From contig JACPAV010000028.1 of assembly GCA_016180645.1 (NCBI GenBank), positions 1 through 64,000 on the forward strand: a stretch of 64,000 nt of DNA. The letters run 5' to 3'. The notes under the pieces are model-generated. The model was not told the origin of the DNA. It worked only from the letters and a program-made list of their open reading frames with translations, and did no database searches. The position numbers were made by a program, and so were the translations under genes. Origin of the DNA: Nitrospirota bacterium (lineage in GTDB: Bacteria; JACPQY01). Of the stretch, positions 9,937 to 57,652 are shown piece after piece (the stretch's first letter is position 1; every line of letters begins with the position of its first letter).

Positions 9937-9964
9937 CTCTCAAATCTCAAGTTTCAAATCTCAG
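9937..9964 (+). repeat. Degenerate heptamer array (unit like ATCTCAA)
   Basis: Four successive 7-bp units: CTCTCAA, ATCTCAA, GTTTCAA, ATCTCAG. The array ends 12 bases before the nth start codon. One of five arrays in the window with the same period but different units (20231, 36424, 41772, 57609). Confidence 0.7.
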
Positions 9965-9976
9965 AAAAGTGGTGGG

Positions 9977-10663
9977 ATGACCCTGGACGATGCCCTCCGC
10001 ATCCTCCGAGCCGAGGTTCGGCAGTGGAAAGTGCCGGTCGTCGGTTGGTACTCTCCCGGCGCCGGCGAAATCGCCCCGGGGGTCCGGGCAGAGTCCCGCA
10101 CACGGTCGCCGTACGCCGTTCTCATCTCCTGCATCCTCTCGCTTCGCACGAAAGACCGGACGACCCACGCCGCCGCTGAAAGACTTTTTGCGGCCGCCTC
10201 CACGCCGCGCGATATGCTCACGCTCACGCCGCGGAAAATCGAGAGATTGATCTACCCGGTCGGTTTCTACAGGACAAAGGCAAAAAACATTCTCCGGATC
10301 AGCCGAATCCTTCTTGAACGGTGGGGCGGTCGAGTCCCCGATACGATCGAAGCATTGCTGGAACTTCCCGGCGTCGGCCGAAAGACCGCGAATCTGGTCG
10401 TCACGCTCGGCTACGACAAGTACGGCATCTGCGTGGATACCCATGTCCATCGAATTTCGAATCGATGGGGCTACGTGCAAACCCGAAGCCCCAATGAGAC
10501 CGAAATGGCTTTGCGCAAGAAACTTCCACGCCGCCATTGGAAAACATTCAACGACCTCCTCGTGACCTACGGACAGAACCTCTGCGTGCCCATTTCGCCG
10601 TGGTGCTCGAAGTGCAGGATTTCGTCGTTCTGTCGGAGGGTTGGCGTCAAGACGCACAGGTAG
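9977..10663 (+). CDS. nth: Endonuclease III (DNA glycosylase/AP lyase)
   Basis: 228 residues. Helix-hairpin-helix LPGVGRKTANLV with catalytic Lys, catalytic Asp in VDTHVHRI, and the 4Fe-4S loop C-x6-C-x2-C-x5-C at the C-terminus (CVPISPWCSKC, then C). It removes oxidised pyrimidines in base excision repair. The ATG at 9977 is preferred; the frame opens earlier but only through the heptamer array. Stand-alone on the plus strand, followed by a palindromic repeat. Confidence 0.93.
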   Translation: MTLDDALRILRAEVRQWKVPVVGWYSPGAGEIAPGVRAESRTRSPYAVLISCILSLRTKDRTTHAAAERLFAAASTPRDMLTLTPRKIERLIYPVGFYRTKAKNILRISRILLERWGGRVPDTIEALLELPGVGRKTANLVVTLGYDKYGICVDTHVHRISNRWGYVQTRSPNETEMALRKKLPRRHWKTFNDLLVTYGQNLCVPISPWCSKCRISSFCRRVGVKTHR

Positions 10664-10665
10664 TC

Positions 10666-10721
10666 CCGCACTTTCCACACCATCGCGGACTTCGTGTCCG
10701 CCGTAAAGGTTGAAAGTGCGG
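10666..10721. repeat. 56-bp palindromic repeat, copy 2
   Basis: Same unit as 6631-6686: arms CCGCACTTTC and GAAAGTGCGG with an inner CGGAC/GTCCG stem. It sits directly behind the nth stop, in the gap before maf, where it may also work as a transcript end hairpin. Confidence 0.75.
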
Positions 10722-10784
10722 CCGGCATCACGCCGGGCCGTCTTTCCAACATGGGCCATTCGTCTATAATGCCGCGGAATAGGG

Positions 10785-11405
10785 ATGGGCAAAATCATTC
10801 TCGCCTCGAAGTCGCCCCGGCGGTCGGAACTGCTTGAAAGCATGAAGATTGCCTTTGAGGCGATCCCCAGTGCCGTTCAAGAGAGTTTGAAGGAGGGGGA
10901 GGATCCGAAGGACGGTTGCATGCGGCTCGCCTTGGCCAAGGCGTTCGACGTCTGTGAAAAAGTCGACGGTCAGTCGGCGGAGGAATCGTGGGTGATCGGG
11001 GCCGACACCCTGGTGGTGGTGAACGGAACCGCCCTCGGCATTCCGAAATCGTACGACCAGGCGCGGCACATGCTGCGGATGCTCAGCGGGCGCGAGCACT
11101 GGGTGTTCACCTCGTTCGCCGTGGTCAACTCGGTCACGCGGGGATGGGAGGCGGAGTTGGTCGGAACGCTGGTGAAGATGAAAGAGGTGGACGAGCAGGA
11201 GATCGAGCGGTACCTCCAGACGGGCGAACCATTCGACAAGGCCGGGGCCTATGCCATTCAGGGGATCGGGGCGTTCATGGTGGAGAAGATATTCGGCTCG
11301 TACACCAACGTGGTGGGGTTGCCCATGGCGGAACTCATTCAGGTCCTGATCAAGATGGGCGCGATTCCGGGGTTCCCGGGGAAGCACGAGGAGGAGAAGA
11401 AGTGA
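10785..11405 (+). CDS. maf: Maf-family nucleotide pyrophosphatase
   Basis: 206 residues. ASKSPRRSELL is the Maf signature; GADTLVVVNG and FDKAGAYAIQGIGAFMVEKI with SYTNVVGLP are the other family blocks. Maf proteins hydrolyse non-canonical or m5/pseudo-nucleoside triphosphates to monophosphates and influence septum formation. It is the first gene of a row with yggS and proC; the yggS GTG overlaps its TGA (GTGA). Confidence 0.92.
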   Translation: MGKIILASKSPRRSELLESMKIAFEAIPSAVQESLKEGEDPKDGCMRLALAKAFDVCEKVDGQSAEESWVIGADTLVVVNGTALGIPKSYDQARHMLRMLSGREHWVFTSFAVVNSVTRGWEAELVGTLVKMKEVDEQEIERYLQTGEPFDKAGAYAIQGIGAFMVEKIFGSYTNVVGLPMAELIQVLIKMGAIPGFPGKHEEEKK

Positions 11406-12256
11406 GCACGATCCCGATGCCGGCCGTCCGGCCTTCCGACATCGCCGGGAGGCTGCGGGAGGTTCGGGAGAGAATCGACCGGGCGGCGCGACGGTCCGGC
11501 CGATCGGCCCACGACGTCCGTTTGGTCGCGGTCACGAAGACGCTCGACGCCGCCGTGGTCCAAGCGGCCTGCGCGCTCGGCCTTTCGGACTTTGGCGAGA
11601 ACTATATTCAGGAAGCCGCGAAGAAAGTGGCGATCCTCGTGGGGGAAGGCGCACGCCCGACGTGGCACTTGATCGGCCACCTTCAGGCGAATAAGGTGAA
11701 AGCCGTGATGGGAACGTTCGCTTGGATACATTCCGTGGATCGGATGTCGTTGCTCGACGATCTCGCGCGTCAGGGTCGGGCCGAAGCCGCCATGCCGGAA
11801 CTCCTTTTGCAGGTCAATCTCGAACAGGATCGCGCGAAGAGCACCAAATTTGGATTTGAGCCGGCGGAGTTGGAAAATGCCCTCCATGCCGCCGCGGAGC
11901 GGCGCCTCCCCGTGCGGGGCCTGATGACCTTCCCGCCCTATTTCGAAGATCCCGAACGAGCGCGCCCGTACTACGCAAGATTGCGGGCCTTGCGCGAGGA
12001 ACTGGCCCGCCGCGATTGGGGCGAGGGGATCGAGATCCGGGAACTCTCGATGGGAATGTCGAATGACTTCGAAACCGCGATCGAAGAGGGGGCGACGATG
12101 GTGCGTGTGGGGACGTCCTTGTTCGGCGCCCGGATGGCAGAGCCGTCCCGCGACGGCCAGGACGGCCCCAAGCGGGGCGGCGCCCGGATGGCAGAGCCGT
12201 CCCGCGACGGCCAGGACGGCCTAAAGCGGGGTGGGCCGCGGAGGAGAGACGAATGA
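11402..12256 (+). CDS. yggS: YggS-family PLP-binding protein with repeated C-terminal tail
   Basis: 284 residues. The fold-type III barrel shows the PLP lysine in VAVTKT and family blocks FGENYIQE, WHLIGHLQANK, LMTFPPYF and ELSMGMSNDFETAIEEGATM, closing with RVGTSLFG. It keeps pyridoxal phosphate in balance; no catalytic reaction is known. The family normally ends near FGAR, but here about 40 extra residues follow, made of two copies of ARMAEPSRDGQDG(P/L)KRGG. This comes from a near-perfect 54-bp tandem DNA repeat (see 12131-12238). It overlaps both neighbours by 4 nt. Confidence 0.92.
   Translation: MSTIPMPAVRPSDIAGRLREVRERIDRAARRSGRSAHDVRLVAVTKTLDAAVVQAACALGLSDFGENYIQEAAKKVAILVGEGARPTWHLIGHLQANKVKAVMGTFAWIHSVDRMSLLDDLARQGRAEAAMPELLLQVNLEQDRAKSTKFGFEPAELENALHAAAERRLPVRGLMTFPPYFEDPERARPYYARLRALREELARRDWGEGIEIRELSMGMSNDFETAIEEGATMVRVGTSLFGARMAEPSRDGQDGPKRGGARMAEPSRDGQDGLKRGGPRRRDE
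12131..12238. repeat. Tandem duplication of a 54-bp palindrome-bearing unit inside yggS
   Basis: Two adjacent copies of a unit beginning CGGATGGCAGAGCCGTCCCG and containing GCCGTC-CCGC-GACGGC and a further GACGGC. They encode the repeated tail of YggS. The inner palindrome suggests that a REP-like intergenic element was captured in frame at the gene end and doubled. Confidence 0.75.
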
Positions 12257-13071: not shown

Positions 13072-13072
13072 A

Positions 13073-13369: not shown

Positions 13370-13397
13370 GATCGATTTTTCGTCGAAGGAGGGAACG

Positions 13398-13904: not shown

Positions 13905-13908
13905 TGGC

Positions 13909-14032: not shown

Positions 14033-14050
14033 GATCCGGTAGTGGCCTGG

Positions 14051-18869: not shown

Positions 18870-20270
18870 CTACAGATCGGCGAAAACCAGCGACTCGAGG
18901 AAGGGGAGAGAGAACGTTTCTCGTTTCTCGCCGAACTCCATCAATTTGCGCTGGACCTCATTCAAGCGATCCGGTCCTTCAGCCCGACTGAGGCCCGAAA
19001 GATTCTCCGGTGCGTCGAGGACTCGATCAAGCCCTAGACAAACGGAATCCCCCGTTGGACAGATGGCGGGGAAGGCAGGGTCGTTGATGATCCACGGCCC
19101 CATCACGAGAAACCCCCCACTTGGAAATGGGCCCATGTTCGGCTGACCGGGCCGGACGCCGAGCGGATATTCCGCCAGCGGGCGGTTTCCAACGTAGTTG
19201 ATATCGCGCCGGATGCGCGGATCGCTTTTCGCCGTGATCGCGGTCTGCCCGTCGAACACCTCGTCCATGAATCGTCCCGTCATCATCGGATTGACGTTGT
19301 AGATCAACGAAGGGTAGGCATCCTGCATCGAGTAGAGCACCGAGCCGAGCCACTCTTCCGGCTGCCAGTACCCGGCCCCACCGATGCTGGTCCACGAGCT
19401 GTCGTTGGCGTCGGGTTGGACCAAGACCTGCACGCCGAGGTCGTTCAGGTGCTTGAGATAAGCCGGGATAAACGCGTCCAGGGAAATGCCGATTCCGTAC
19501 CGATACCCGGCGTAATCGCATGCGCCCACGTCACCCAGCGCGCCCGGCGTGACCTCGATGGTTTGCTCAAACGGAACGAGGTTTACCTTGTCCCACCGGT
19601 AGACGATACGGCCCTGGGTATCGAAGAAGAGCGTGGCGTTGGTGACGCGCGTGTCCGAGGCGCTGACGGCGAGCGTGGCGGCATCGAACATCGGCACAAG
19701 CGTGGTGGCCATGACCGGCACGCCGTATTTCTGAGCCGCATAGGCGAAGGTTCGCGTGAAGGATTTCCAGCCGTGGCTCGCAAGCTTGTGGACGATGACC
19801 TTCACATCGCCGGAGTCGGCGAACTGGGCGGCCGCAATGAAGAGCGATGTCTGTCTCCTGGCGCGGGCCCCCTCGTCGCCGACAAACACCAGCGGGAGCC
19901 CGGTGTATTCCTCGAAGACCACCAGGTTGGGTATGTCTTTTCGAAAATAATCGGACGATCGCTTCATCATGCAATCGATCACGGCCGCGTAGGACGCTTC
20001 GGATTCCCCTTCTTCCACGTTCACTCGCCGCCCGAGCGCGAAGACCCTCACCTTTGCATCCTGCTTCATCGATCCCAGGACCACGGGATCGAAAAGCTTG
20101 GCGCAGTCGACACCCCCGGCGGCCATCGAGGGAGCCTCGGGAATGGCGGAGGCGGTGTACGCCGGCGTGCATGTGATCGGCGCGCTCGTCAGGCTTTCAC
20201 CCTTCTCGCAACTGAGGCCGAGAGCCGCCAGGATCCAGGAACCAGGAACGAGGAACTGTGAGATATTCAT
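18870..20270 (-). CDS. Nitrilase-superfamily protein with Ser replacing the catalytic Cys
   Basis: 466 residues with an export signal (about 1-20, WILAALGLSC) and a Cys21 that could be lipidated, though the lipobox is imperfect. The carbon-nitrogen hydrolase fold is visible: Glu121 in LVVFEE, Lys228 in RWDKVNLVPFE, but the nucleophile position reads GIGISLDAF with Ser263 where active enzymes have Cys (GICYD). The catalytic strand is followed by VQVLVQPDAN as in the family. Either the activity is lost and it binds a ligand, or the chemistry changed. Third gene of an operon with a Tat subunit and a GMC oxidoreductase (ATGA overlap). Its N-terminal codons 5-14 are a heptamer array. Confidence 0.75.
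   Translation of the reverse strand: MNISQFLVPGSWILAALGLSCEKGESLTSAPITCTPAYTASAIPEAPSMAAGGVDCAKLFDPVVLGSMKQDAKVRVFALGRRVNVEEGESEASYAAVIDCMMKRSSDYFRKDIPNLVVFEEYTGLPLVFVGDEGARARRQTSLFIAAAQFADSGDVKVIVHKLASHGWKSFTRTFAYAAQKYGVPVMATTLVPMFDAATLAVSASDTRVTNATLFFDTQGRIVYRWDKVNLVPFEQTIEVTPGALGDVGACDYAGYRYGIGISLDAFIPAYLKHLNDLGVQVLVQPDANDSSWTSIGGAGYWQPEEWLGSVLYSMQDAYPSLIYNVNPMMTGRFMDEVFDGQTAITAKSDPRIRRDINYVGNRPLAEYPLGVRPGQPNMGPFPSGGFLVMGPWIINDPAFPAICPTGDSVCLGLDRVLDAPENLSGLSRAEGPDRLNEVQRKLMEFGEKRETFSLPFLESLVFADL
20231..20258 (+). repeat. Degenerate heptamer array (unit like GGAACCA)
   Basis: Four 7-bp units GGATCCA, GGAACCA, GGAACGA, GGAACTG, lying in the first codons of the nitrilase-like gene, where on the minus strand they encode part of the signal peptide. 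Confidence 0.7.
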
Positions 20271-21784
20271 GCCAACCTTTTCTTGATCCCTTCCGCAATC
20301 TTCGTCGCAAAAGCCATGATGGTGAGCGAGGGATCGAGCGATAAGGAGGTGGGGAAAACGCTCCCGTCGGCCACAAAAAGATTTTTCACCCCCCGCGCCT
20401 CGCCGTTCAAGTCCAAGACCCCGAAATCGGGGTCTTTCGACATGGGGACGGTTCCCATGATGTGCGGCCCCACGGCGATGCAGCGTTTCATGTCGATCCC
20501 GTTGACGGCGCTCTCGATGTCCGAATCTTTCCGAACCCGTGTGCCGACGTTGTCGAAGAAGATCACCTCCTCGCAGCCGGAGGCCAGGAACATGCGGGCC
20601 GACTTCTTGAAATAATCGCGGGCCTTCAGGGCATCGGGCTCGCTGATGGCGTAGTGCGGGACTTCGCGGCCCTCGGAGTCCAACTCCACGCGGCCACCGA
20701 CCTCGTCGTCCAAAATAGAAAGCGTGAGGCCGTAGTGATCGTATTTCGACATGAACTCGGTGAGCTCCGGACCGAACCAGGGGCTCAGCGCGGCCATTGA
20801 GCCGGGATGGAGGAAGCCGGGAAGAATGAGATAGCCCCCTTCGATGTGGCGGCCTTGGGCATCGCGACGCGTCTTGCGCCATTCATGGACGGCAAACGGC
20901 GACGGGATATTGCGATACGAGTGGACGGGGTCCGGGAATTTGCCCATGACCCAATAGTTCGGGTTTAGAAACAGTTGTGCGCCAAGTCGCTTGTGGGCGA
21001 CGCCGGAGCGGAGCAGGAGTCCGGCCGATCCGAGCCCGCCGGCACTCACCACCACGGCCTTCGCGTGGACCTCGATCTCGTGCGTGGGTGTTTCGGACGC
21101 GGGATCGAGGAACGTGCCTTGAATGCCTACGGCCATGCCGTTTTCGGTGATGACGCGACGGGCGCGGCAGTTGGTGAAAATCCTGGCCCCGGCGTTCGAC
21201 GCCCGGGGGACATACGTGACCAGCATGCTTTGCTTGCGGTTGTACGGGCAGCCCAGAGTGCAGAATCCGGAAGAGGTACACGCCTGACGTGCCTGCGGAA
21301 CGGCCCCTCCCTCCCATTCGAGCGTCTTGCAGGCCTCGCGGAATCGCTTGTTCTGCTCGTTGAACAGGTATTCCGGAGCGACTTCGACGTGAAGGTTGCC
21401 TTCGACCCGGTCGTAGTACGAATAGAACTCGTCGCCGATCCCATGCGGATCGCGCCACTGCTCGAATCGGTCCCGCGGCAGCCGAAAGCTGTCCGCCCAG
21501 TATTTGACCGTTCCCCCGCCAAGGCACCGCCCATACGAGAGGATGACGCCTTCGCGCGTGGCCACGAACCCACCCCAGGCGGCCACTTTGAGAAAACTTT
21601 CCGTCTCGATTTCGTTGAAATCCTTCTCCGCGGTGAAGAATCCGCCTTCTTCGAGGACAACGACGGAGAGTCCCGCCTCCGAAAGTTCCCCGGCCACCAC
21701 CCCCCCCCCGGCACCGGAGCCGACGATGCAGACGTCGGCCGTCTCGGTCACCTTCTTGTTGATCGTCCGGCTTGTGTAAATCAC
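20267..21784 (-). CDS. GMC-family FAD oxidoreductase
   Basis: 505 residues. FAD-binding VCIVGSGAGGGVVAGELSEA near the N-terminus with VVVLEEGG, a GRCLGGGTVKYWA block, and the C-terminal GMC end GVKNLFVADGSVFPTS. A CTSSGFCTLGCPYNRK segment (three Cys) resembles cholesterol/gluconate-type dehydrogenases. GTG start overlaps the stop of the Tat subunit gene (GTGA). It has no signal of its own and is probably exported by piggy-back on the Tat subunit. The substrate is an alcohol or sugar acid; which one is unknown. Confidence 0.88.
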   Translation of the reverse strand: MIYTSRTINKKVTETADVCIVGSGAGGGVVAGELSEAGLSVVVLEEGGFFTAEKDFNEIETESFLKVAAWGGFVATREGVILSYGRCLGGGTVKYWADSFRLPRDRFEQWRDPHGIGDEFYSYYDRVEGNLHVEVAPEYLFNEQNKRFREACKTLEWEGGAVPQARQACTSSGFCTLGCPYNRKQSMLVTYVPRASNAGARIFTNCRARRVITENGMAVGIQGTFLDPASETPTHEIEVHAKAVVVSAGGLGSAGLLLRSGVAHKRLGAQLFLNPNYWVMGKFPDPVHSYRNIPSPFAVHEWRKTRRDAQGRHIEGGYLILPGFLHPGSMAALSPWFGPELTEFMSKYDHYGLTLSILDDEVGGRVELDSEGREVPHYAISEPDALKARDYFKKSARMFLASGCEEVIFFDNVGTRVRKDSDIESAVNGIDMKRCIAVGPHIMGTVPMSKDPDFGVLDLNGEARGVKNLFVADGSVFPTSLSLDPSLTIMAFATKIAEGIKKRLA

Positions 21785-22341
21785 GCGTGATAGGTGGATT
21801 CCACCAGCCCCGGCACCTCGACGGGCGCGATCCCATACTTGTCCTTCCACGTTCCATCGTACGGGAGATGGGCGAAGACGCGCGGGTCGCCGAAATAGTA
21901 GAACGCGCAGACGGATTTGATCGCGTTGTACCCCAGAAGTCGAAAGCCCAGTCCCGACGAGCGCCACCGGAGCAGTTCGCTACGGGCCTGGTCCACGCTC
22001 ATCCGGGTGAACCGGCTGAAGCGGAAACCTGGGAACACCGGCCACCATTCAATCAACCCGAGGAGGGTTTTGAAATCGCTCGTGATCGCCGGCTCGGCGG
22101 CGGACATCCATACGAGGTGGCGGTCGACCCGGTCGACGATGCCGATTTCATCGGGGCTCGGCCACGGTGGCTCGCTTGGAAGAACGGCGTGGGATGCCTT
22201 GCGAAGGACTTCGCGATGTTTGGGGTTCAGAAATAGATTCCCGGCGGGTACGGGCGGCGCGGCCGATGTGGTATCATAGCCGGAAGCTGCGAAGTAGGTG
22301 GAAATCATTCCCAGAGATTGCAGGAACTCCCTTCGCCTCAT
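21781..22341 (-). CDS. Gluconate 2-dehydrogenase subunit 3-like Tat protein
   Basis: 186 residues with a twin-arginine start MRRREFLQSLGMI and a helical body typical of the small third subunit of membrane gluconate/fructose dehydrogenases (LNPKHREVLRKASHAVLP). In that family the small subunit carries the Tat signal and escorts the FAD subunit to the periplasm. It is the first gene of the three-gene operon. Its ATG overlaps the ATG of the divergent deacetylase (shared CATG). Confidence 0.8.
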   Translation of the reverse strand: MRRREFLQSLGMISTYFAASGYDTTSAAPPVPAGNLFLNPKHREVLRKASHAVLPSEPPWPSPDEIGIVDRVDRHLVWMSAAEPAITSDFKTLLGLIEWWPVFPGFRFSRFTRMSVDQARSELLRWRSSGLGFRLLGYNAIKSVCAFYYFGDPRVFAHLPYDGTWKDKYGIAPVEVPGLVESTYHA

Positions 22342-36169: not shown

Positions 36170-37579
36170 CTATCCCAGCACTTCCAAGACGGATCGATCA
36201 ACCGATCGTGCCAGTTTTCGGATTTCGGAGGGCGTGATGCTCAGGGGCGGCATCAGGACGATGACGTCGCCGAGGGGGCGGAGGATCACGCCGAAGTCGC
36301 GGGCCTTCATGCAGACGCGGTAGCCGACGCGGTCTTTGACGTCGAAGAGATCCCGCGTGGCCTTGTCCTTCACGAGTTCGATCCCCACCATGAGGCCGCG
36401 TTGGCGGATTTCGCCGACAAACCGTGAAGAGTGAAGTGTGATGAGTGAAGTGTGAAGAGCGCGGATCTTGTTGGGAAGCGATTGCAGGACCTGCTTCTTT
36501 CGGAACACATGGAGACTCGCCAGCGCGGCGGCGCAGCCGAGAGGATTCCCCGTGTAGGTGTGTCCATGATAGAAGGTTTTTTGTTCCTCGTATGCGCCGA
36601 TAAAGGCTACATAGACCGCATCCGTGGTGAGCGTGGCCGCGAGAGGGAGCACCCCTCCCGTGATGCCTTTGGCTATACACATAATATCGGGTGAAACGCC
36701 TTCATGCTCGGCGGCGAACATTTTTCCGGTTCGACCGAACCCCGTGGCTACTTCATCAAGGATCAGCAGGAGACCATGGTCGTCGCAAAGTTTTCGGATC
36801 CGCTTGAGGTAGCCGGGAGGGTGAACCACGATTCCCGCGGCGCCCTGGACGAGTGGCTCCATGAAAACCGCGGCGAGTTCAGTGTGATGTTCGCGGAGCG
36901 TTTTCTCCAGGACTTTGTAGCATTCAAAACGACAGGGGAGATCGCGTTCGGCGTTGAATGACTTGCTGCTCCTGTGAAGGGCGTTGGCGAACTTGTCGAA
37001 GCCCATTCCCTTGTACCCCACCGGACACCGGTGGCAATAGGGCGAGGGGGCTTTGATGGTGTCGAACAGGAGCGGTTTGTAGGTTGCGTGAAAAAGGTCG
37101 ATGCCGCCAAGGCTGACGGAGCCGATGGTATCGCCGTGATACGCCTCCGTGAGCGTAAGGAATCTTGTCTTTCTTTTCGGTTCGGGGACCTTCCTGGTGG
37201 GTCCCATTTGCTGCCAGTACTGATACGCCATCTTGAGCGCGATCTCGGCCGCCGTCGCGCCGCTATCCGAGTAGAACACCTTGGAGAGTCCGGGGGGAGC
37301 GAGTTGGACGAGTTCTTTGGCGAGTTGAATCCCCGGCTTGTGGGTGAGTCCGAGGAAAGTGGAGTGATCGAGTTGGCCGAGCTGATCCTTAATGGCTCGA
37401 TTGATCTCGGAGACGTTGTGTCCATGCACGTTGCACCAGAGGGATGACACGGCGTCCAGATATTTGTTTCCGTCTTCGTCATATAGATAGTTTCCCTTCG
37501 CTCGCTCGATGATGAGGGGATCGGCGGCGTTCCACTCGGCATGCTGGGTGAAGGGATGCCAGACGAATTGCTTGTCCAT
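36170..37579 (-). CDS. bioA: Adenosylmethionine--8-amino-7-oxononanoate aminotransferase
   Basis: 469 residues, slightly long for BioA. VWHPFTQHAEW at the N-terminus, YSDSGATAAEIALKMAYQYW, AYHGDTIGSVSLGG, ILDEVATGFGRTG, the PLP lysine in CIAKGITGG and FYHGHTYTGNPLGCAAA. It makes 7,8-diaminopelargonate in biotin synthesis; no other bio gene is in the window. The residues ALHTSLITLHSSRF are coded by a 35-bp heptamer array (36424-36458) inserted in frame near a surface loop. AAGGAG touches ATG 37579 directly, so a start a little further upstream (ATG 37660) is possible. Confidence 0.92.
   Translation of the reverse strand: MDKQFVWHPFTQHAEWNAADPLIIERAKGNYLYDEDGNKYLDAVSSLWCNVHGHNVSEINRAIKDQLGQLDHSTFLGLTHKPGIQLAKELVQLAPPGLSKVFYSDSGATAAEIALKMAYQYWQQMGPTRKVPEPKRKTRFLTLTEAYHGDTIGSVSLGGIDLFHATYKPLLFDTIKAPSPYCHRCPVGYKGMGFDKFANALHRSSKSFNAERDLPCRFECYKVLEKTLREHHTELAAVFMEPLVQGAAGIVVHPPGYLKRIRKLCDDHGLLLILDEVATGFGRTGKMFAAEHEGVSPDIMCIAKGITGGVLPLAATLTTDAVYVAFIGAYEEQKTFYHGHTYTGNPLGCAAALASLHVFRKKQVLQSLPNKIRALHTSLITLHSSRFVGEIRQRGLMVGIELVKDKATRDLFDVKDRVGYRVCMKARDFGVILRPLGDVIVLMPPLSITPSEIRKLARSVDRSVLEVLG
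36424..36458 (+). repeat. Degenerate heptamer array (unit like GTGAAGA) inside bioA
   Basis: Five consecutive 7-bp units, all GTGAAGA, GTGAAGT or GTGATGA. Five units make 35 bp, not a multiple of three, yet the bioA frame is open across it, so the flanks must have adjusted. Only one of the five arrays lies wholly inside a conserved enzyme. Confidence 0.8.
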
Positions 37580-37785
37580 CTCCTTCCAGTTCGATTGGCA
37601 CTTGCCGTTCTTGCGCCGCCCATCCTTGGGACGGCGCCGATGCGGCAAGTACCGCACCATCCGTGGCTGGCTTCTCTTTTTCATCCGCGGCCCTTTCCGC
37701 TATGCTACAAGGACCGCGAAAGGAAACGTCATGCCAATCATGCGCGGCATTGTACCAGACACACAAGTTGAAGGAGGCAAGACTC

Positions 37786-38542: not shown

Positions 38543-41500
38543 TCAGTTCTTCGGAAAGAAGGTACAGTCGCCCGTTGCGAGGCAGGGGTCGTCGGAGATT
38601 GATTTCCCGTCCGCCAGGAAAAATGCGGCGGCCTGCTGGAGGATGAAGTTGTCCACGTTGAACTCTTTGCTCGGATTCGACGGACCGAAGCAATGCTGGC
38701 CGGTGGACCGCATGTAGGGAATCCGCATTCCGGAGACGCCGTTACGCGTCGATTTCGTCGCCCGCAACGGAGACTGACCCTTCGCCCTCAAATCAGGGGC
38801 CTTGTACTTGTCCGTCCCGTTGTCGAGGTCGTCCAGATCGAATAGGATTTCTCTGTCATCATTCCAAGGCGGACCTGCGAACAGTTTGAGTCGTTCGGCT
38901 CCCTGGGCGACGCCATTCCTCAGAATCACTTCGTTCTCGGTGAGTCCGCCGTACTCCGCCTTGGGCGAGAGCACGTCGATAATCCCCGCTGCGCGCGCGA
39001 TGTTGACGCCCGTGCCGATCGGGACGTTCATGTCTCCCACGGTGTTCACGACGAGGACGGGAACCGCCCAATCGTCCCTGGGAATGTCCTTTTCGTAACT
39101 GAAGTCGAGAGGTGACTGGAAGTAATGGGGGGCGTAAGCGACGGGATCGCCGGGGTCGATGGCGGTCTGGGCGATGGAAACGAAACGGCGGAAATCGGGG
39201 CGGTTCCGTTTGAATCCGTATCCGGAGTGGAGCGCCACGAGCCGGCTCCCGGCTTCGTATCGGGCTCCCTGAAATACGAAGGGGCTTTCCACGCGCCGGA
39301 AGGTGGCTTTCCGATCGGAACAGGGCGCGGTTCGAAAGTCTGGGCCGGGACACACGCGAACTTCCCACGCATCACCGGCGAGGAGGGATTCATCCGTATC
39401 GAGAGAAGGCGTTTCCTCGGGAGGCTTGACCTTTCCCAAAGTTCCGAGCAGATGACGTTTTTCCGAACCGTTCAACGCATCGGAGGCTACGGCCAGCCGA
39501 AATCTCCGAGTGGACGGGACGATCTGCCAGTCCCATTCGCCGTTGGTGAGGTTGTGGAGCTCCACGCGGTCGCCGGGCTGAATCTGATCGGTGACGAGAA
39601 ACGGGAGGTGAGCCTGTAGATATATGTTGAGAGCAAGGTGCTTGATTTCGATCCGTCCATCCGACGTGGGGTTTCCGGAAATCATCGGTCCGAAGAGCGG
39701 CATATAGATGGCTTCGATTGCGCGGGGCTGCACGGTGCGGATGGCAACGTCGGCCAGACCGGCGGCGCCGGACATCGGGGCGGAGGCCACGAGCGCGGGT
39801 TCGATGCCGCTCATGAGGCCGGAGGTGATTCCGCCCAATGAACAACCGGTCATGTAGTATTTTCGCCCCATTCCGACCGGACCGCCGAAATCCACCCTCC
39901 CGTCGCCGTTGAAATCGCCCGCGATCTCCGGTAAGCCGTCGCCGTCGAGGTCCTGCTTTGATCGGGCCGCTCCGTCCCACGATCGCATGATCCGCACGAG
40001 CTGGAGGTAGTCCACCATGGTTTGCCGAAGGGCGTCTCGCGTGTGGAACAGGTCCGGCGTGAAAAGGTCGCCGGCCGATTCGGCGAAGCCATCGTTGTTC
40101 AGGTCGCGTGCGCGGCCTTTGAGAATCACGTTGTCGAAGAAGGGTTCCATCGCCAGGCCTTTGAGCAGAGCTCGAATGGTTTCGAGGTTGATCGGGAGAT
40201 TGGCGCTTTCGCCGAGAATGACGGCCATCCCGCTGCTGAACGCATCCACGCCACAGGTTGCGAATCCATGTTCGGCCATCGGTCCCATCTGGAGAATCGC
40301 GGCGATTCTCGAACCCCCGTAGCCATGAGGAAGGAATACGAGGGGAAAGGGCTGCGAGCGTCCCTCCTTTTCCTTCGGAACGGCGCAGAAGAACATGCCA
40401 CGCCCTCGCCCCACCGTGGCTCGTCCCGCCGGCGCGTCAATATCGAACACCTCATCCTCGTCCGCGGGGTAGTCTTTTTCGGCGATGCCGTCTTTGTCCA
40501 CCATGAAATCGGGACTGAGATGCGTTCCCGCGATGAAATAGTCGATGGAGTCCCATGGGCGGAAAAACTCCTCGAGGAAACCTTCGGTGTCCGGCGTGTC
40601 GACGAAAAACTTCAAGATATCCGGATAGCCCTTCGCGATGCTGTCGAAGAGGCCGCGGAGCGTAGAGGCGGGCATCCGATGGACGTTGGTTACACCGAGT
40701 GAGGAGTTTGGACGGCTGAAGAGCGGATCGATTTCGTATTCGGCGGGAAATGCCGTACTGAGCCATGCCATTGGGCCGTGACCGTAGAGGCCGGCGCGGA
40801 TGAGCTCCATCTCGCCGGTGGCATCCTGCGTGGTGAAGGGCCAGGCGAAAGCGACATCGGACAGGGAAATCCCGAGGTTGGCGCGGTCACCCGTTCCCGG
40901 CACGGTGGCGACGGAAAGGGCCTCCGGGAGGGCTGTGAGCGAGGGAGTCTGGTTGGCGTGATTGATGTAGCGGAAGGGGGAGCGGATTGGATTCCCATCG
41001 GCGCCCAGGAGACGCCGGGTGAGGACGACCGCGTAGGTCGTCCGCTGATCGAGCGGCAGGACAGGGCGGGCCACCAAAGTGTTGGTTTCCCGCTCGTAGA
41101 AGGCCAGCAGTTCATGATCCTGATCCACGGGGCGTTTTGAGGGATCCCAAACGTTCGGGTGATCGAGGACGCCGTCGAAATCCACATCCTCTCCTTCGTC
41201 GAGAATCCCATTGCCGTTGCGGTCCTCTTCCTGAGTATCGAACAGCAAGTTGCTGGCGAAGCGTTTGGGATCGTTTTCAAAGATGCCGAAGGGATCGTCG
41301 GCGTCTTTCTTCTTTTCGTCGATCAGGACCGGGAAATTCCCCTGCCCAAGTTCGAGCGGGATGAGGCGGCCGAAATTCGGCGAGCGCTTTTCGATGTTGA
41401 TGAGATAGATCAGATCGTCGGTGAAATCGTTGTCGGCGATGTGGTGTTGGGCGAAAAGAGTGAGGTCGAGCGGCGCGGAGAAGCGCACGCTGATCGGGCC

Positions 41501-41743
41501 GAAAGTGCTGAACCCGGAAAGCCTGTTCGCTTCGAGGCGGACGCCGCGCTCGAGGTCGGTGGGAGCGTCGAGAGAGAGGGATACTCGTCGTCCGGTAGGA
41601 CTTGAAGGGTCGATGCGCGTGGCGATGTCGTTCGGAAACGGGATTTCAGGGAGCGGCTCGTTGAAGAGGTCGAAAATGACGCGCGGACCCGGGCCCTCCT
41701 CCGCATCGAGCAAGCCATTCGGCTGGCCGGCACAGCGGAACAA
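38543..41743 (-). CDS. VolA-like secreted alpha/beta-hydrolase with Ca-binding loops (copy 1)
   Basis: 1066 residues from TTG. The N-terminal region (LFNEPLPEIPFPNDIATRID ... LSGFSTFGPISVRFS) is like the bacterial virulence-factor lipase N-domain. Calcium-type loops DRNGNGILDEGEDVDFDG and DLDGDGLPEIAGDFNGDG flank the hydrolase core. Candidate triad: Ser635 in MTGCSLGG, Asp in VVNTVGDMNVP, His in TGQHCF near the end. About half identical by eye to the 1144-residue protein at 54218-57652. In-frame codons upstream of TTG spell a signal-like ALFLSTLFLALFRC, but no ATG, GTG or TTG precedes them. Likely an outer-membrane lipase or esterase. Confidence 0.75.
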   Translation of the reverse strand: MFRCAGQPNGLLDAEEGPGPRVIFDLFNEPLPEIPFPNDIATRIDPSSPTGRRVSLSLDAPTDLERGVRLEANRLSGFSTFGPISVRFSAPLDLTLFAQHHIADNDFTDDLIYLINIEKRSPNFGRLIPLELGQGNFPVLIDEKKKDADDPFGIFENDPKRFASNLLFDTQEEDRNGNGILDEGEDVDFDGVLDHPNVWDPSKRPVDQDHELLAFYERETNTLVARPVLPLDQRTTYAVVLTRRLLGADGNPIRSPFRYINHANQTPSLTALPEALSVATVPGTGDRANLGISLSDVAFAWPFTTQDATGEMELIRAGLYGHGPMAWLSTAFPAEYEIDPLFSRPNSSLGVTNVHRMPASTLRGLFDSIAKGYPDILKFFVDTPDTEGFLEEFFRPWDSIDYFIAGTHLSPDFMVDKDGIAEKDYPADEDEVFDIDAPAGRATVGRGRGMFFCAVPKEKEGRSQPFPLVFLPHGYGGSRIAAILQMGPMAEHGFATCGVDAFSSGMAVILGESANLPINLETIRALLKGLAMEPFFDNVILKGRARDLNNDGFAESAGDLFTPDLFHTRDALRQTMVDYLQLVRIMRSWDGAARSKQDLDGDGLPEIAGDFNGDGRVDFGGPVGMGRKYYMTGCSLGGITSGLMSGIEPALVASAPMSGAAGLADVAIRTVQPRAIEAIYMPLFGPMISGNPTSDGRIEIKHLALNIYLQAHLPFLVTDQIQPGDRVELHNLTNGEWDWQIVPSTRRFRLAVASDALNGSEKRHLLGTLGKVKPPEETPSLDTDESLLAGDAWEVRVCPGPDFRTAPCSDRKATFRRVESPFVFQGARYEAGSRLVALHSGYGFKRNRPDFRRFVSIAQTAIDPGDPVAYAPHYFQSPLDFSYEKDIPRDDWAVPVLVVNTVGDMNVPIGTGVNIARAAGIIDVLSPKAEYGGLTENEVILRNGVAQGAERLKLFAGPPWNDDREILFDLDDLDNGTDKYKAPDLRAKGQSPLRATKSTRNGVSGMRIPYMRSTGQHCFGPSNPSKEFNVDNFILQQAAAFFLADGKSISDDPCLATGDCTFFPKN

Positions 41744-41771
41744 AGCCAGGAACAGGGTGCTGAGGAAGAGA

Positions 41772-41806
41772 GCTGACCGGTGAGTGCTGATGGCTGTTCG
41801 CTATCT
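41772..41806 (+). repeat. Degenerate heptamer array (unit like GCTGATG)
   Basis: Five 7-bp units: GCTGACC, GGTGAGT, GCTGATG, GCTGTTC, GCTATCT. It spans the stop codon of the small lipoprotein and the missing start of the VolA-like gene. Confidence 0.65.
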
Positions 41807-42136
41807 TAACTTTGCCCCGAGACCCCAGACGTGCACGCAGAACTTCTGGTAGACGAGGTAATTGTGAAACTCCACTTCCGTTCGAGGCTCAAGAATGAAA
41901 TCAGCGCTCTTCGATTCGAGGGCGTTCTTGTACGCTTCCATCGCGCTGGCAGGGTCAATGTGGAGAATGTAGAGAATCGACTTGCCGCACTCGCTTCCGT
42001 AAACGGGGCCGACGATGGAGTATGTTTCAGGAGTGAGTTGGTGCTGCTGAAGTCCGACGACGATGTTGGGCGCCGCCGCCCGGAACGTTCCGCAGCCGGC
42101 CAGGAAGATCGTGGCGAAGAGAATCGCTTTGCGCAT
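41801..42136 (-). CDS. Small lipoprotein, TRL-like
   Basis: 111 residues. MRKAILFATIFLAGC is a type II signal with a good lipobox (FLAGC). The mature part has GPVYGSECGKSILYILHIDP, then AMEAYKNA and a final YQKFCVHVWG, which resembles the TRL-like lipoprotein family; function unknown. The ATG at 42136 is chosen over an upstream TTG/ATG because it starts the signal. It lies just before the VolA-like gene in the same frame and probably on the same transcript. Confidence 0.65.
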   Translation of the reverse strand: MRKAILFATIFLAGCGTFRAAAPNIVVGLQQHQLTPETYSIVGPVYGSECGKSILYILHIDPASAMEAYKNALESKSADFILEPRTEVEFHNYLVYQKFCVHVWGLGAKLR

Positions 42137-53254: not shown

Positions 53255-53280
53255 CGGGTTTTGTCCCGGCCGGCGATCGC

Positions 53281-54234
53281 TCAGTCAGGTGGTCTGCGGC
53301 CGTTCTTCTGTCCCCGGATCAAGCCGTGGGACTGAAAGAACTTCTCGACGCGCAGGTTGATCCAGTCGGGGAATTCGATGGGAACGTAGTGCGTTCCATT
53401 CGGAATGACCATCAGCTCGGAGCCGGAGATCGCCTTGTGCATCTTGATCGCTCGACTCGCGGGCGTCATGTTGTCGTGGTCGCCGAAAGCGATGAGCACC
53501 GGGACTTTCACGTCCGGGAGCACGTCGCCGGCGTCATGTTCCCCGAGAAGATTCAGCGTTCGGTAGTAGACTTCAAAATCCATGTTGATGAATTCTGCGG
53601 CCACGGAACGGAAGATTTCTTCGGCACAGGTCTTGCCGACAATGCCGAGGAGTTTCATCCCGTCGAAGGCCCAATCCTGCTTCAGGAGCCAGTCCATCGC
53701 CTTCTTCTGCGGGCCGCCCATCCGTTCGAGAAGGGTGATGAATCGGGGGAGCGTGGCGCGAAGGCGGACGTTCTGGACGAAAGAGTCGAAAGGCTTTCCG
53801 TCCACCCCGGAGAAGGCCACGATGGCATTGAACCGATCCGCGTGCTCACGGTAGTACTCGAAGCAGACTTGGACGCCCATGCTCCACCCGGCGAAGATGG
53901 CGCGAGGGATGTTCTCCTTTTCCATGAGGATCTCCAGGTCGCGGCACTGATTGGGCACGGAGAGGGTGGACAAATCCTTCGGGCGCTGGGAGGTGTACAG
54001 CCCCCGGTAGTCCCAAATGTAAATGCGGAAGCGGTCGCCGAAGTAATCGATGAAGAATTTCCATGGGACCCAATTGCCGCCGAGGCCGTTGGCCACAACC
54101 AGGGGGATTTTCCCCCGGCCCGTGACGTGGTACCCGATGCGGGTGCCGTCGTAGCTGCTGAAGGATCGGGACTCGATCGGGTATTTCACCTCGATCGGGG
54201 CGACGATGGGCGGCTCGCTATGGGTTTTCATCAT
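53281..54234 (-). CDS. Alpha/beta hydrolase
   Basis: 317 residues. Nucleophile elbow GWSMGVQ, Asp in AFGDHDNMT, His in NGTHYVP and an oxyanion NGLGGNW loop. No signal peptide, so probably cytoplasmic. ATG 54234 (or the next ATG three bases on) overlaps the stop of the VolA-like gene by about 17 bases; the last gene of the 62.1-53.3 kb operon. Confidence 0.87.
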   Translation of the reverse strand: MMKTHSEPPIVAPIEVKYPIESRSFSSYDGTRIGYHVTGRGKIPLVVANGLGGNWVPWKFFIDYFGDRFRIYIWDYRGLYTSQRPKDLSTLSVPNQCRDLEILMEKENIPRAIFAGWSMGVQVCFEYYREHADRFNAIVAFSGVDGKPFDSFVQNVRLRATLPRFITLLERMGGPQKKAMDWLLKQDWAFDGMKLLGIVGKTCAEEIFRSVAAEFINMDFEVYYRTLNLLGEHDAGDVLPDVKVPVLIAFGDHDNMTPASRAIKMHKAISGSELMVIPNGTHYVPIEFPDWINLRVEKFFQSHGLIRGQKNGRRPPD

Positions 54235-57200
54235 GGAACGCGCAAGTGTTGCTCTCCAGACACGAATCGTCAAGCAGTTCCCGGCCGTCCGTGCTGACGA
54301 AGCGGGCCATCTGTTGGACGATGTAGTTGTCGAGGTTGAAATCTTTATTCGGGTCGGACGGCAGAAAGCAGTGCTGGCCGTGATCGCTGAGGTAGGGGAG
54401 GCGGAACCCGGAGACGCCGGAGGCTCCCGGCTGAACGTCGCCTACATTTACTTTGACGCGAAGGGGCGCGAGTCCCTCCGTGCGGAGGTCGGGGGCGTCG
54501 AGGTCCGCGTCCTTCCGGCCCGTTTCCTGAGCATCCCATCGGTCGGCTCCTTCATCGAGGTCGTCCAGGTCGAATAGAATCTTTCGCGCATCATTCCAGG
54601 GCGGGCCGGCGAAGCGCCGGAGCCGCTCAACTCCCTCCGCGGCGAAATGCTCGACGATGAGGTCGTTTTCGACGCGGTCGGCCTTTCCGCTATAGGCGAA
54701 CGTGCGGCGGGGAGTGGGGTAACCGATGTCGATGATGCCTGCCGAGCGGGCGATATGGATGCCGGTGTTGACGGGGACGGCGGTGTCGCCATCGGTGGCG
54801 ACAACGAGAATGCGCTGAATCGGGTCCGTGACCTCGCGGTCATACGAGAAATCCAGCGGGTCCTTGAAGTAATGGGGCGCGGAGCCGCCCGGGTCGCCCG
54901 AGTCGAGGATGACTTGTGAGATGGCGGAGAAGCGCCGGATGCGGGGCGAGTTGCGCTTCATGCCCAATCCCTCCGTGATCGCGGCGATCCGGCTGCGGGC
55001 CATGTACCGCGCGCCTTGGAAGAGAAACGTGTTCGTTGTCATGTTGATCGGTTCGAAGTCCGCGCAGGGTTCCGAATCGTTCCAAGTCTCGTCTGCATCC
55101 GAGGTGCGGCAGAGCCGGATTTCGAGGGGGTCACCGAACAGGAGCGGTTCGTCGTCATTCAGATCCGGCACCGTGTCGGGCGGCTTGCCTTTTCCGAGAT
55201 CGCCGAGGAGGTGGCGTTTTTCCGTGGCGTCGAGCGCGTCCGCGGCCGCGGCCAGCCTGAACCGTCCGCCCCCGCTCACGACGGCGCGATCCCACTCGCC
55301 GTTCCTGAGATTGTGGAGTTCGATGCGTTGGCCCGCCTTGATCTTGTCAGTTCTCAGAAAGACCGGTTGTACGCGACGGTTCACATCCGTGAGAACAAAC
55401 TTGACCTCGATCGTGGAAGGGTCCGCCGGGTCGGGTGTGCCCGAGATGATGGGACCGAATAGCGGCAGGTATACGGCTTCGACGACGCCGTCCTGCGTCG
55501 TTCGTGCTGCCACGTCCGTCAGGCCCGCCGCCCCCGAACTTGCAATCCCCGCGACGAACGCAGGTTCGAGGCCGAGCGTGTAGGCCGTCATGATCCCGCC
55601 GTTCGAGCAGCCGTCCATATAGTATTTCGCGCCGTCCGCCAGCGGTCCGCCGAAATCCACGACGCCGTCGCGGTTGAAATCGCCCGCGAGTGTTTCTTTC
55701 GTTCCATCGCCGTCCATGTCCATCATTGCCTTGCCGTCCCAGCTCCGGAACATTCGAATGAGTTGGAAGAAATCCACGCCCGTCTGCCTGACGGTGTCGC
55801 GTGTATGGAAAAGATCCACGCCCCAGAAATCGCCGCCCGAATCGGCGATGCCGTCGTTGTTGAGGTCCCGCGCGCGGCCCTTGAAGAACACGCCGTCCAG
55901 CAGGGGCAGCCAATCTTTGGGGATGACGTTTCGAACGAGGGCCTCCTCATCTTTGGACGGTTTGAAAAGGCCGTGAGCCACGGAATCGACGCCGCAGTAC
56001 GCAATGCCAAAACGGTTCATCACGCCGGCGAAGCCGATGCCCTCTATTCGATGAAGCGTGTAACCGTGGGAATGCAGGCCGAGAGGGATCGGCCCCGTCT
56101 GACCCGGTCTGCGCTTGGGAACGGCGCACACGAAGGTAATGAGATTGTGCCCCACCGTGGCGCGGCCGGTCCGAAGATCGATGTCGAAGGATTCATCGTT
56201 GTCCGCCGGATAGAGGGGGTTGACGTTCGGATCCGGCGACGGCTCGCCGATGCCGTCTTTGTCCGTGAGAAAATAGGGCGTGTCCACGAAACCGGCGACG
56301 AGGTAGTCGGTGTACTTGAGACTTTTCCGGACTTCTTCCACGAACGGCGCTCCGGTGCCGATGAGCTGGCCGACGAGTTCCTTTCCGTAGTTTTCCACGA
56401 GGTTGTCCAGCTCCGCGGCCGGCAGGAGGTAGGGATTTTCGCGGCCGGCGCTGTCCGCGTAGATCCGTTCGACGTGGATGTCGGGCGGGTATTGGTCCTG
56501 GATCCAGGCGAAGGGCCCTTTGCCGTACATCCCCTTTCGGATCGCTTCCATCTCGCGGGTGACGGCTTGGGTGGTGAACGTCCAGGCGAAGGCGACGTCG
56601 CTCATCGCCATGCCGGGCAACTTTCCGTCCCTGATGAAGTCGGCGAGGGGTTGCAGGTCGTCCGTCTGCGTGGCGGCATTGACGAAGGGGAAGGGCGACT
56701 CGATGGGCTTGCTGTCTTCGCCCGTGATTCCGGTGGTCAGCACCACGGCGTAGGTCGTTTCCTGTTCCAGGGGAATGAGCGGTCGGACGATCAGTGTGTT
56801 CGTTTCGCGCTCATAGAACGTCATGAGGCATTCTTCCGGCCGGCACTTGGGGACGCAAGCGCCCGACTCGGACTCATAGGAGACGACGGTGCAGCCTTCC
56901 TTGAATATTTGGTCGACGGGAGCGGCAGGTCGCCCTGTGGGACTGCATTGGGGGATGACGGAATCGCGGATCATGTTGGGTTTGTCCAGCACTCCGTCGA
57001 AATCGGTGTCTTCGCCGGCATCCAGCGAGCCGTTGCAATTCACGTCCTCGTCCACGGTTTCAAAAAAAAGATTGTTCGATGTTCTGTGCGGATCGTTTTC
57101 GAAGAGACCGAACGGCGCCTCGCCGCCGCCGGCGCCGCGGTCGCTGTCGATCACGTTCGGGAAATTTCCTTGGCCGACATCCAGGGGGACCGGCTGGCCG

Positions 57201-57652
57201 AACGAACTTGATTTCGGATCCACGTTGACGAGGTAAACCAAATCATCCGAGAAATCGCGATTGGGCGGCCAGTGGGCGAGCACAAAAGGCGCGAGGTCGA
57301 GCGGCCGATCGAATTGTACGTAGATCGGGCCGAGGATGCTGAAGCCTGTAAGCTCGGCGGCCTGGCGGCGAACGCGACGCTCGATCTGAGTCGGGGCGAG
57401 GAGGGAGAGGGTGACGCGCCGGCCGGTGGGCGAACTTGGATCGATTCTTGTCGCGATGTTGTTGGGAACCGGGATTTCCGGGAGGGGTTTCTTGAACAGA
57501 TCCCACACGACCTTCGGCCCGCCGGTATGCACGGTGGCCGTGATCCCTCTTGGACCGTCGCCCGCGCATTGAAACAGCATCAACGCGAGGGCCAATAGGA
57601 TCGTTCCCCACGAGCCACGAGCGACGAGCCACGAGTCACGTCTTGTCAGCAT
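54218..57652 (-). CDS. VolA-like secreted alpha/beta-hydrolase with Ca-binding loops (copy 2)
   Basis: 1144 residues. Signal region ILLALALMLFQC (Cys34), then LFKKPLPEIPVPNNIATRID and LTGFSILGPIYVQFD as in copy 1. Ca-type loops DVNCNGSLDAGEDTDFDG, DLNNDGIADSGGD and DMDGDGTKETLAGDFNRDG. Candidate triad: Ser683 (DGCSNGG), Asp in VVATDGDTAVP, His in HGQHCF. Longer than copy 1 mainly by an insert with Cys residues near 250-290. Outer-membrane lipase/esterase by family logic. Codons 6-15 are a heptamer array. Confidence 0.78.
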   Translation of the reverse strand: MLTRRDSWLVARGSWGTILLALALMLFQCAGDGPRGITATVHTGGPKVVWDLFKKPLPEIPVPNNIATRIDPSSPTGRRVTLSLLAPTQIERRVRRQAAELTGFSILGPIYVQFDRPLDLAPFVLAHWPPNRDFSDDLVYLVNVDPKSSSFGQPVPLDVGQGNFPNVIDSDRGAGGGEAPFGLFENDPHRTSNNLFFETVDEDVNCNGSLDAGEDTDFDGVLDKPNMIRDSVIPQCSPTGRPAAPVDQIFKEGCTVVSYESESGACVPKCRPEECLMTFYERETNTLIVRPLIPLEQETTYAVVLTTGITGEDSKPIESPFPFVNAATQTDDLQPLADFIRDGKLPGMAMSDVAFAWTFTTQAVTREMEAIRKGMYGKGPFAWIQDQYPPDIHVERIYADSAGRENPYLLPAAELDNLVENYGKELVGQLIGTGAPFVEEVRKSLKYTDYLVAGFVDTPYFLTDKDGIGEPSPDPNVNPLYPADNDESFDIDLRTGRATVGHNLITFVCAVPKRRPGQTGPIPLGLHSHGYTLHRIEGIGFAGVMNRFGIAYCGVDSVAHGLFKPSKDEEALVRNVIPKDWLPLLDGVFFKGRARDLNNDGIADSGGDFWGVDLFHTRDTVRQTGVDFFQLIRMFRSWDGKAMMDMDGDGTKETLAGDFNRDGVVDFGGPLADGAKYYMDGCSNGGIMTAYTLGLEPAFVAGIASSGAAGLTDVAARTTQDGVVEAVYLPLFGPIISGTPDPADPSTIEVKFVLTDVNRRVQPVFLRTDKIKAGQRIELHNLRNGEWDRAVVSGGGRFRLAAAADALDATEKRHLLGDLGKGKPPDTVPDLNDDEPLLFGDPLEIRLCRTSDADETWNDSEPCADFEPINMTTNTFLFQGARYMARSRIAAITEGLGMKRNSPRIRRFSAISQVILDSGDPGGSAPHYFKDPLDFSYDREVTDPIQRILVVATDGDTAVPVNTGIHIARSAGIIDIGYPTPRRTFAYSGKADRVENDLIVEHFAAEGVERLRRFAGPPWNDARKILFDLDDLDEGADRWDAQETGRKDADLDAPDLRTEGLAPLRVKVNVGDVQPGASGVSGFRLPYLSDHGQHCFLPSDPNKDFNLDNYIVQQMARFVSTDGRELLDDSCLESNTCAFHDENP
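57609..57636 (+). repeat. Degenerate heptamer array (unit like CACGAGC)
   Basis: Four 7-bp units CACGAGC, CACGAGC, GACGAGC, CACGAGT at the N-terminal codons of the VolA-like copy 2, coding for SWLVARGSW. Confidence 0.75.

What the first reader, a model, noticed from the sequence alone, without database searches (positions are those of the whole stretch)
9937..57636. Five degenerate heptamer tandem arrays with different units, mostly at gene 5' ends or junctions
At 9937-9964, 20231-20258, 36424-36458, 41772-41806 and 57609-57636 four or five 7-bp units follow each other. The units share no sequence between arrays (ATCTCAA, GGAACCA, GTGAAGA, GCTGATG, CACGAGC) but the period is always exactly 7 and units differ at only some positions. 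Four lie at a start codon, N-terminal codons or an intergenic junction; one is inside bioA. Common period with different sequence suggests a copying process that extends by 7 nt, not descent from one repeat. Cyanobacterial heptamer repeats (STRR) are a known parallel, but there the units are shared. Being out of step with the codon length, gain or loss of a unit would shift reading frames and could switch expression.
Basis: partly seen in the sequence, partly recalled or inferred. Interest (0 to 1): 0.7.

Follow-up and report, generated by a model that had tools for sequence, protein, structure and literature searches.

The report
Dispersed heptamer arrays with swappable units
The five 7-base repeat patches are real and belong to hundreds in this genome; they sit mostly just after stop codons, in signal-peptide codons and in protein loops, and comparison of two other related bacteria shows that such patches keep their place between species while their 7-base unit can be replaced wholesale, for reasons nobody yet knows.

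Summary
In 856 kb of this 4.7-Mb genome, period 7 is the clear outlier (78 arrays, against 17 for period 6 and 6 for period 8; shuffled control 0). The arrays do not each have a private unit. They fall into about 11 recurring families (GTGAWGN, GCTGANN, TTTGARA, CGTGAGT and others), each with a fixed core and one or two free positions. They often come in inverted pairs with strict, family-specific polarity. They abut stop codons in co-directional spacers, encode signal-peptide residues, or fill protein loops. In BioA the array replaces ordinary sequence with no length change and is shared with the one available relative.

In two congeneric genomes from another lineage, 17 of 20 array-bearing spacers carry arrays in both species, but about 7 of those 17 have a different unit family. 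Sites are conserved while units are swapped, and whole four-unit arms recur as modules.

Phase switching is not supported. Private slippage at each site is insufficient. The class is known in fragments (Geobacter paired heptanucleotides, Xanthomonas GGGANTN, TAACTGA) without a mechanism. I favour dispersed heptad-armed palindromes whose arms are rewritten by copying within the genome. The copying machinery is unidentified.

The parts
9938..9963 (-). Heptamer array, TTTGARA family (TTGAGAT TTGAAAC TTGAGAT TTGAGAG on the minus strand), 5' leader of an HhH-GPD repair-protein gene starting at 9977
20228..20256 (-). Heptamer array, GTTCCTN family on the minus strand, encoding part of the signal peptide MNISQFLVPGSWILAALGLSCEKG of a lipoprotein gene (18870-20270, minus) that starts in an ATGA overlap with the stop of a GMC oxidoreductase gene (20267-21967, minus)
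36424..36459 (+). Heptamer array, GTGAWGN family (GTGAAGA GTGAAGT GTGATGA GTGAAGT GTGAAGA), inside bioA (36170-37684, minus), encoding ALHTSLITLHSSR; same place, same family and no indel in the relative G001; outgroup BioA proteins have ordinary sequence of equal length
41768..41799 (+). Weak heptamer array, GCTGANN family (GCTGACC GGTGAGT GCTGATG GCTG), start of the signal peptide of lipoprotein gene 38543-41743 (minus, true start upstream of 41743), directly after the preceding gene's stop
57608..57640 (-). Heptamer array, GTGGCTC/GTGACTC on the minus strand, n-region of the signal peptide MLTRRDSWLVARGSWGTILLALALMLFQCAG of lipoprotein gene 54218-57652 (minus), a paralogue (47% identity) of 38543-41743 that carries a different unit family at the same place

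Best explanation
The arrays are members of a large population (about 500 by extrapolation) of dispersed tandem-heptamer elements. Shown: typically four 7-nt units per arm; a family-specific fixed core with one or two free positions; often two arms in inverted orientation around an unrelated short loop with strict polarity; located in transcribed, weakly constrained DNA (just after stop codons in co-directional spacers, signal-peptide codons, protein loops) and nearly absent from divergent, promoter-bearing spacers. Also shown: sites persist between species while the unit sequence, both arms and the loop can be replaced wholesale by another family. Inferred: arms are rewritten in place by copying from other elements of the same genome (conversion or template switching at existing arrays), so families spread and replace one another, and selection mainly tolerates, or mildly uses, an intercistronic structure there. 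Why the step is 7 nt and which enzyme does the copying are unknown.
For: Period-7 excess. Recurring families with the same free columns; GTGAWGN within-array diversity per column .04 .50 .01 .02 .10 .02 .58, equal to family-wide diversity, p=0.0002 for column heterogeneity. Strict polarity: 20 convergent and 0 divergent pairs for GTGA, 5 and 0 the other way for GCTGA, the same in G001; none divergent among 26 NCTGAGT pairs in G355/G387. Context: co-directional 31, convergent 1, divergent 1 (G000); 18, 6, 0 (G001). Orthologous junctions G355 versus G387: 17 both, 3 one-sided, 17 neither, Fisher p=7e-8; unit family swapped at several. Whole arms recur (CCGC in 8 of 23 arms) with a mode of four units. 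BioA array shared at the same codons with no indel. An agmatine deiminase orthologue pair has arrays of different units at the same codon.
Against: In G000 the arms are too degenerate to show recent copying: shared three-unit strings only 10 versus 3.9 expected, p=0.01. Loops are not shared between copies, unlike a normal mobile element. At free positions the arms are no more complementary than shuffled arms in G387, and less so in G000, which argues against a base-paired stem as the selected object. Many arrays occur in one orthologue only. In gene-dense operons, coincidence of tolerated sites could mimic replacement. No enzyme identified: Y1 transposase (RAYT-like) genes are not enriched near arrays (2 of 15).
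Confidence: 0.5

Rival explanations
1. Plain replication slippage with a favoured 7-nt step (the polymerase-contact idea attributed to Mrazek and co-workers), tolerated where sequence is unconstrained, with decay by point mutation.
For: Period 7 with many unrelated cores in many genomes, including a scrambled core chosen as a control (34 of 386 genomes); positions in tolerant DNA; some other genomes hold long perfect arrays.
Against: Column-blind slippage cannot give the same fixed and free columns at dozens of loci, strict-polarity inverted pairs or recurring whole arms. Adjacent units show no copying memory in G000. Length-neutral replacement in BioA.
Confidence: 0.25
2. Arrays are binding sites, in paired opposite orientation, for sequence-specific proteins (the Geobacter 'global regulator/IHF-HU site' reading; ribbon-helix-helix omega repressor on 7-bp WATCACW heptads as a mechanistic analogue).
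For: Fixed core with free positions; paired arms in fixed polarity; avoidance of arm complementarity; published precedent PMC2700814; omega/heptad paper located (not read; heptad consensus from memory).
Against: About 11 families in one genome would need as many proteins; unit family changes at conserved sites between congeners; arrays sit inside unrelated genes and in most spacers of a ribosomal-protein gene cluster; divergent promoter spacers are avoided.
Confidence: 0.15
3. Selected intercistronic mRNA hairpins (translation insulation, mRNA protection or processing); any sequence that folds will do, and heptads are merely the mutational supply.
For: Position right after stop codons in co-directional spacers; most longer spacers of a ribosomal-protein gene cluster carry one in both G355 and G387 while units differ; inverted arms.
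Against: Free positions do not covary between arms within a hairpin in G000 or G387; many G000 arrays are single-armed, including all five in the window; arrays inside BioA and agmatine deiminase have no such role.
Confidence: 0.2
4. Contingency loci: unit number changes switch frames or expression.
For: 7 is out of step with 3; several arrays lie at gene starts; lipoprotein gene 38543-41743 has no canonical start before its lipobox.
Against: Arrays are degenerate, with no sign of recent unit duplication; coding arrays stay in frame; genes of every kind are affected. The Xanthomonas authors reached the same conclusion (PMC4692102).
Confidence: 0.04

Closest known systems
Geobacter metallireducens paired tandem repeats (class 3 heptanucleotide MTYCTGA, H4 heptanucleotide GGGACCG, class 1 octanucleotide GTTGCTYN), PMC2700814
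   Same: Four or five tandem heptamers, paired on opposite strands at variable distance, within and between genes, in many copies; class 3 contains the CTGA core seen here; octamer variants also occur here
   Different: Described there as regulator sites in one genome; no comparison of orthologous sites beyond noting that the proBA spacer holds a different repeat in G. sulfurreducens
Xanthomonas (GGGANTN)n and Nostoc GGGGA(C/T)T heptamers, PMC4692102
   Same: Two free positions per heptamer, mode of four units, 70-75 convergent pairs per genome, close to the upstream ORF's end, scarce between divergent genes, variable between species
   Different: Single unit type per genome and G-quadruplex emphasis; here about 11 unit types coexist and G-tracts are mostly absent
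TAACTGA direct repeats of Beggiatoaceae and Cyanobacteria, PMC4679880
   Same: Intergenic tandem heptamers; as ACTGATA the unit fits NCTGANN
   Different: Exact units, single orientation upstream of start codons, one family
Cyanobacterial STRR heptamers
   Same: Tandem heptamers in intergenic DNA
REP/BIME palindromes with RAYT transposases
   Same: Dispersed palindromic elements in transcribed spacers, avoiding promoters (from knowledge)
   Different: No heptamer structure; RAYT-like genes not near arrays here

Membership tests
Geobacter-type paired tandem heptamers | Four or five tandem heptamers per site | tested here: met
   sharp mode of four units in G355/G387
Geobacter-type paired tandem heptamers | Sites paired on opposite strands | tested here: met
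   Genome-wide; not for the five window arrays individually
Geobacter-type paired tandem heptamers | Bound by a global regulator (proposed) | not testable with these tools
   Needs pull-down or ChIP
Xanthomonas GGGANTN heptamers | Unit GGGANTN with G-tracts able to form G-quadruplexes | tested here: not met
   Family consensus list
Xanthomonas GGGANTN heptamers | Located just after upstream ORF, scarce between divergent ORFs, convergent pairs | tested here: met
   searches compared with PMC4692102
TAACTGA repeats | Exact TAACTGA units | tested here: not met
   Units degenerate; only the CTGA core is shared
Phase-variable contingency repeats | Near-identical units prone to slippage | tested here: not met
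   Adjacent-unit identity not above random
Phase-variable contingency repeats | Copy number varies between cells or strains | not testable with these tools
   Only one distant relative of this genome is held
REP/RAYT elements | Association with Y1 (RAYT) transposase genes | tested here: not met
   2 of 15 Y1_Tnp loci have an array within 1.5 kb
Known Rfam RNA family | Match above gathering score at an array | tested here: not met
   Only a tRNA at 6479-6561 in the window

The most novel reading that the evidence does not exclude
A dedicated writing machine (RNA-templated, or hairpin-directed template switching) overwrites short stretches of chromosome in place with 7-nt units taken from a small genome-specific repertoire, without changing length where proteins forbid it, and periodically switches repertoire. 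Sites are heritable but content is rewritten.
Probability: 0.08. Interest if true: 0.95.

Novelty: new variant of a known kind. Interest (0 to 1): 0.62.

Why it matters
The excess of 7-nt repeats in bacteria has been noted in scattered reports (PMC4692102 cites a 2007 survey) without an explanation. This case shows in one place that (1) many unit families coexist and share an architecture rather than a sequence, (2) they can occupy protein-coding DNA without changing length and supply signal-peptide codons, and (3) the site outlives the unit: in congeneric species the same spacer often carries a different heptamer family. That turns a curiosity into a testable problem, because strain pairs can now be searched for replacement events and their tract ends.

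Tried and rejected
RAYT/REP dispersal: Y1 transposase genes exist (7 in G000, 8 in G001) but arrays are not near them. Hairpin arms kept by covariation: rejected in G000 and G387, though G355 arms do match above shuffled (0.64 versus 0.42), probably because arms there are locus-wise alike. One universal core: GCTGANN is commoner (68 of 386 genomes) than a scrambled core (34 of 386), but the scrambled core also forms degenerate arrays, so no single core is required. Strict polarity as a pure stop-codon effect (TGA arms cannot lie sense in coding DNA): explains the GTGA family where one arm is coding, but not GCTGA pairs, which lie in spacers. Discrete mobile element with a conserved loop: loops are unrelated between copies. 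Assembly artefact: the same phenomenon occurs in independent assemblies of many lineages. Rfam families: none.

Full report
Observation. The five arrays are in the sequence; four are listed by Tandem Repeats Finder as period 7, and the fifth (41768-41799) is weak. In 856 kb sampled from the same genome (G000, 4.72 Mb, 65 contigs; the window is contig 28, 1-64000) period 7 is the clear outlier: 42 self-match segments of score at least 12, against at most 8 for any other period below 14 and 0 in a shuffled control. With a column-based detector there are 78 arrays at the strict threshold against 0 in shuffles (94 against 8 at the looser one), and 17, 6 and 1 for periods 6, 8 and 9. This extrapolates to roughly 500 arrays per genome.

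Families. The arrays are not private sequences. They cluster into about 11 unit families in G000: GTGA[AT]GN (26 arrays), GCTGANN (11), TTTGARA (11), CGTGAGT (8), GGGAGGY (7), and smaller ones. A pattern search of the whole genome gave 79 hits for GTGAAGN triplets with two mismatches, against 8 for the reversed pattern. In GTGAWGN the within-array diversity of the seven columns is .04 .50 .01 .02 .10 .02 .58, the same as across the family (column heterogeneity p=0.0002; GCTGANN likewise). At the free columns adjacent units are no more alike than random draws (0.345 against 0.327), and in GCTGANN they are less alike (0.10 against 0.28 here, 0.06 against 0.31 in the relative). Column-blind slippage from one founder unit per site does not predict this.

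Pairs. Arms of one family often face each other across 8 to 115 bp of unrelated loop. For GTGA the order is always GTGA...TCAC (20 convergent, 0 divergent, 6 direct); for GCTGA always TCAGC...GCTGA (5 to 0); the relative G001 shows the same polarity. The free positions of facing arms match less than shuffled arms (0.40 against 0.53), so base pairing of the arms is not what is preserved. None of the five window arrays has a clear partner within 250 bp.

Position. Of 94 arrays, half are intergenic (random expectation 9%), 20% lie in the first 120 nt of a gene (random 9.5%) and a quarter are internal (random 76%) (gene calls are my own simple caller). Intergenic arrays lie between co-directional genes: 31, against 1 convergent and 1 divergent spacer, and 18, 6 and 0 in G001. 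Their edge is typically 0 to 16 nt after the upstream stop. The TCAC arm commonly encodes the hydrophobic part of the next gene's signal peptide, for example FLLITTYSSLITRSAYGE and GLLVAFLITLHSSLVTRLAFAG (read by eye from the sequences). In the window, arrays 20228, 41768 and 57608 encode signal-peptide residues of lipoproteins. The genes at 38543-41743 and 54218-57652 are paralogues (47% identity) carrying different unit families at the same place.

Comparison with the only relative. The nearest named genome is the MAG 'Nitrospirae bacterium NC_groundwater_665_Ag_B-0.1um_64_68' (bioA 70% identical), the same as handle G001 and the only other member of the family held; all other genomes offered were 'same domain' only. 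G001 has 95 arrays in 1.0 Mb, with partly different families. In BioA both genomes have a GTGAAG-family array at the same codons, and 14 other BioA proteins from various phyla have no indel there, so the array replaced sequence of equal length. In agmatine deiminase both orthologues have an array at the same codon but of different units. In a third protein they overlap and differ by 21 nt. In a GlnE-like protein the array is in one genome only and nearly length-neutral (protein names by my own recognition). Among 116 orthologue pairs arrays coincide at gene ends or inside genes 11 times, against about 1.7 expected from the margins (a few of these are the same array counted for two neighbours).

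Site kept, unit swapped. GCTGANN arrays occur in 68 of 386 genomes of other lineages, some degenerate, some perfect; a scrambled core occurs in 34. One such genome, G355, has a congener, G387 (about 71-85% nucleotide identity over the compared stretches). Across 37 orthologous junctions 17 have arrays in both, 3 in G355 only, 0 in G387 only and 17 in neither (Fisher p=7e-8; nine of the 'neither' spacers are 20 bp or shorter, and leaving them out gives about 5e-5 by hand). At about 7 of the 17 shared sites the unit family differs, judged by eye, for example (GACCGCA)n against (GAGTCCT)n, a GTACTGA hairpin against (CATGRGG)n, and AGCTCYT against GGTGTCG. At another site a heptamer pair faces an octamer pair. 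In a ribosomal-protein gene cluster several adjacent sites changed from {C,G}CTGAGT to {A,G}CTGAGT in both arms, with loops unalignable while flanks are about 85% identical. Arms have a sharp mode of four units and recur as whole strings (CCGC in 8 of 23 arms of G387). One site is cleanly empty in G387: a 19-nt spacer against 78 nt.

Interpretation. Two layers are needed: a copying process with a 7-nt architecture that can spread arms between sites and replace them, and tolerance or mild selection that keeps the sites in transcribed, weakly constrained DNA away from promoters. The first is inferred from shared arms and unit replacement; its enzyme is unknown, and RAYT-like transposases are not associated. 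Frame-shifting phase variation finds no support. Regulator-binding or RNA-hairpin functions remain possible for some elements, but neither explains all features.

Literature. The closest descriptions are Geobacter metallireducens (four or five tandem heptanucleotides, paired on opposite strands, interpreted as global-regulator sites; it also notes that the proBA spacer holds a different repeat in the sister species; PMC2700814) and Xanthomonas (GGGANTN)n (mode four units, 70-75 convergent pairs, close to the upstream ORF, function unknown; PMC4692102). TAACTGA repeats (PMC4679880) fit the NCTGANN pattern. I found no report of unit swapping at conserved sites or of length-neutral occupation of coding DNA, but only open-licence papers were searchable.

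Noticed in passing
window 38543-41821 (-): The lipoprotein paralogue's reading frame runs back through its signal peptide into the preceding gene's stop codon with no ATG, GTG or TTG before the lipobox; it may use a rare start, re-initiate, or be out of phase.
   Followed up: partly
window 12124-12231: A 54-bp unit duplicated in tandem (96% match, multiple of 3), unrelated to the heptamers.
   Followed up: no
G000 contig 65 (locus L069: 133, 2588, 5030, 7338, 12531): Five near-identical GTGA-family arrays spaced about 2-5 kb apart, suggesting tandemly repeated genes sharing the same array.
   Followed up: no
G387 C61 / G355 C63 (loci L332, L345): At one orthologous site a heptamer palindrome in one species faces an octamer palindrome (GGTCACGA units) in the other; period 8 is the next commonest period in these genomes.
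   Followed up: partly
L311 2734-2970: A separate dispersed repeat of about 237 bp present in some 40 copies in G355.
   Followed up: no
G355 C27 (locus L344, spacer between gene): A heptamer palindrome fills a ribosomal-gene spacer from stop codon to start codon, so that the AGGAGCC units of its right arm supply the only Shine-Dalgarno-like sequence; the congener has an ordinary 19-nt spacer.
   Followed up: partly
loci L142 and L143 (Deltaproteobacteria UBA6106 and UBA5758), upstream of bioA: Orthologous GTTCAAN arrays nearly identical in one arm, with the second arm present in only one of the two.
   Followed up: no
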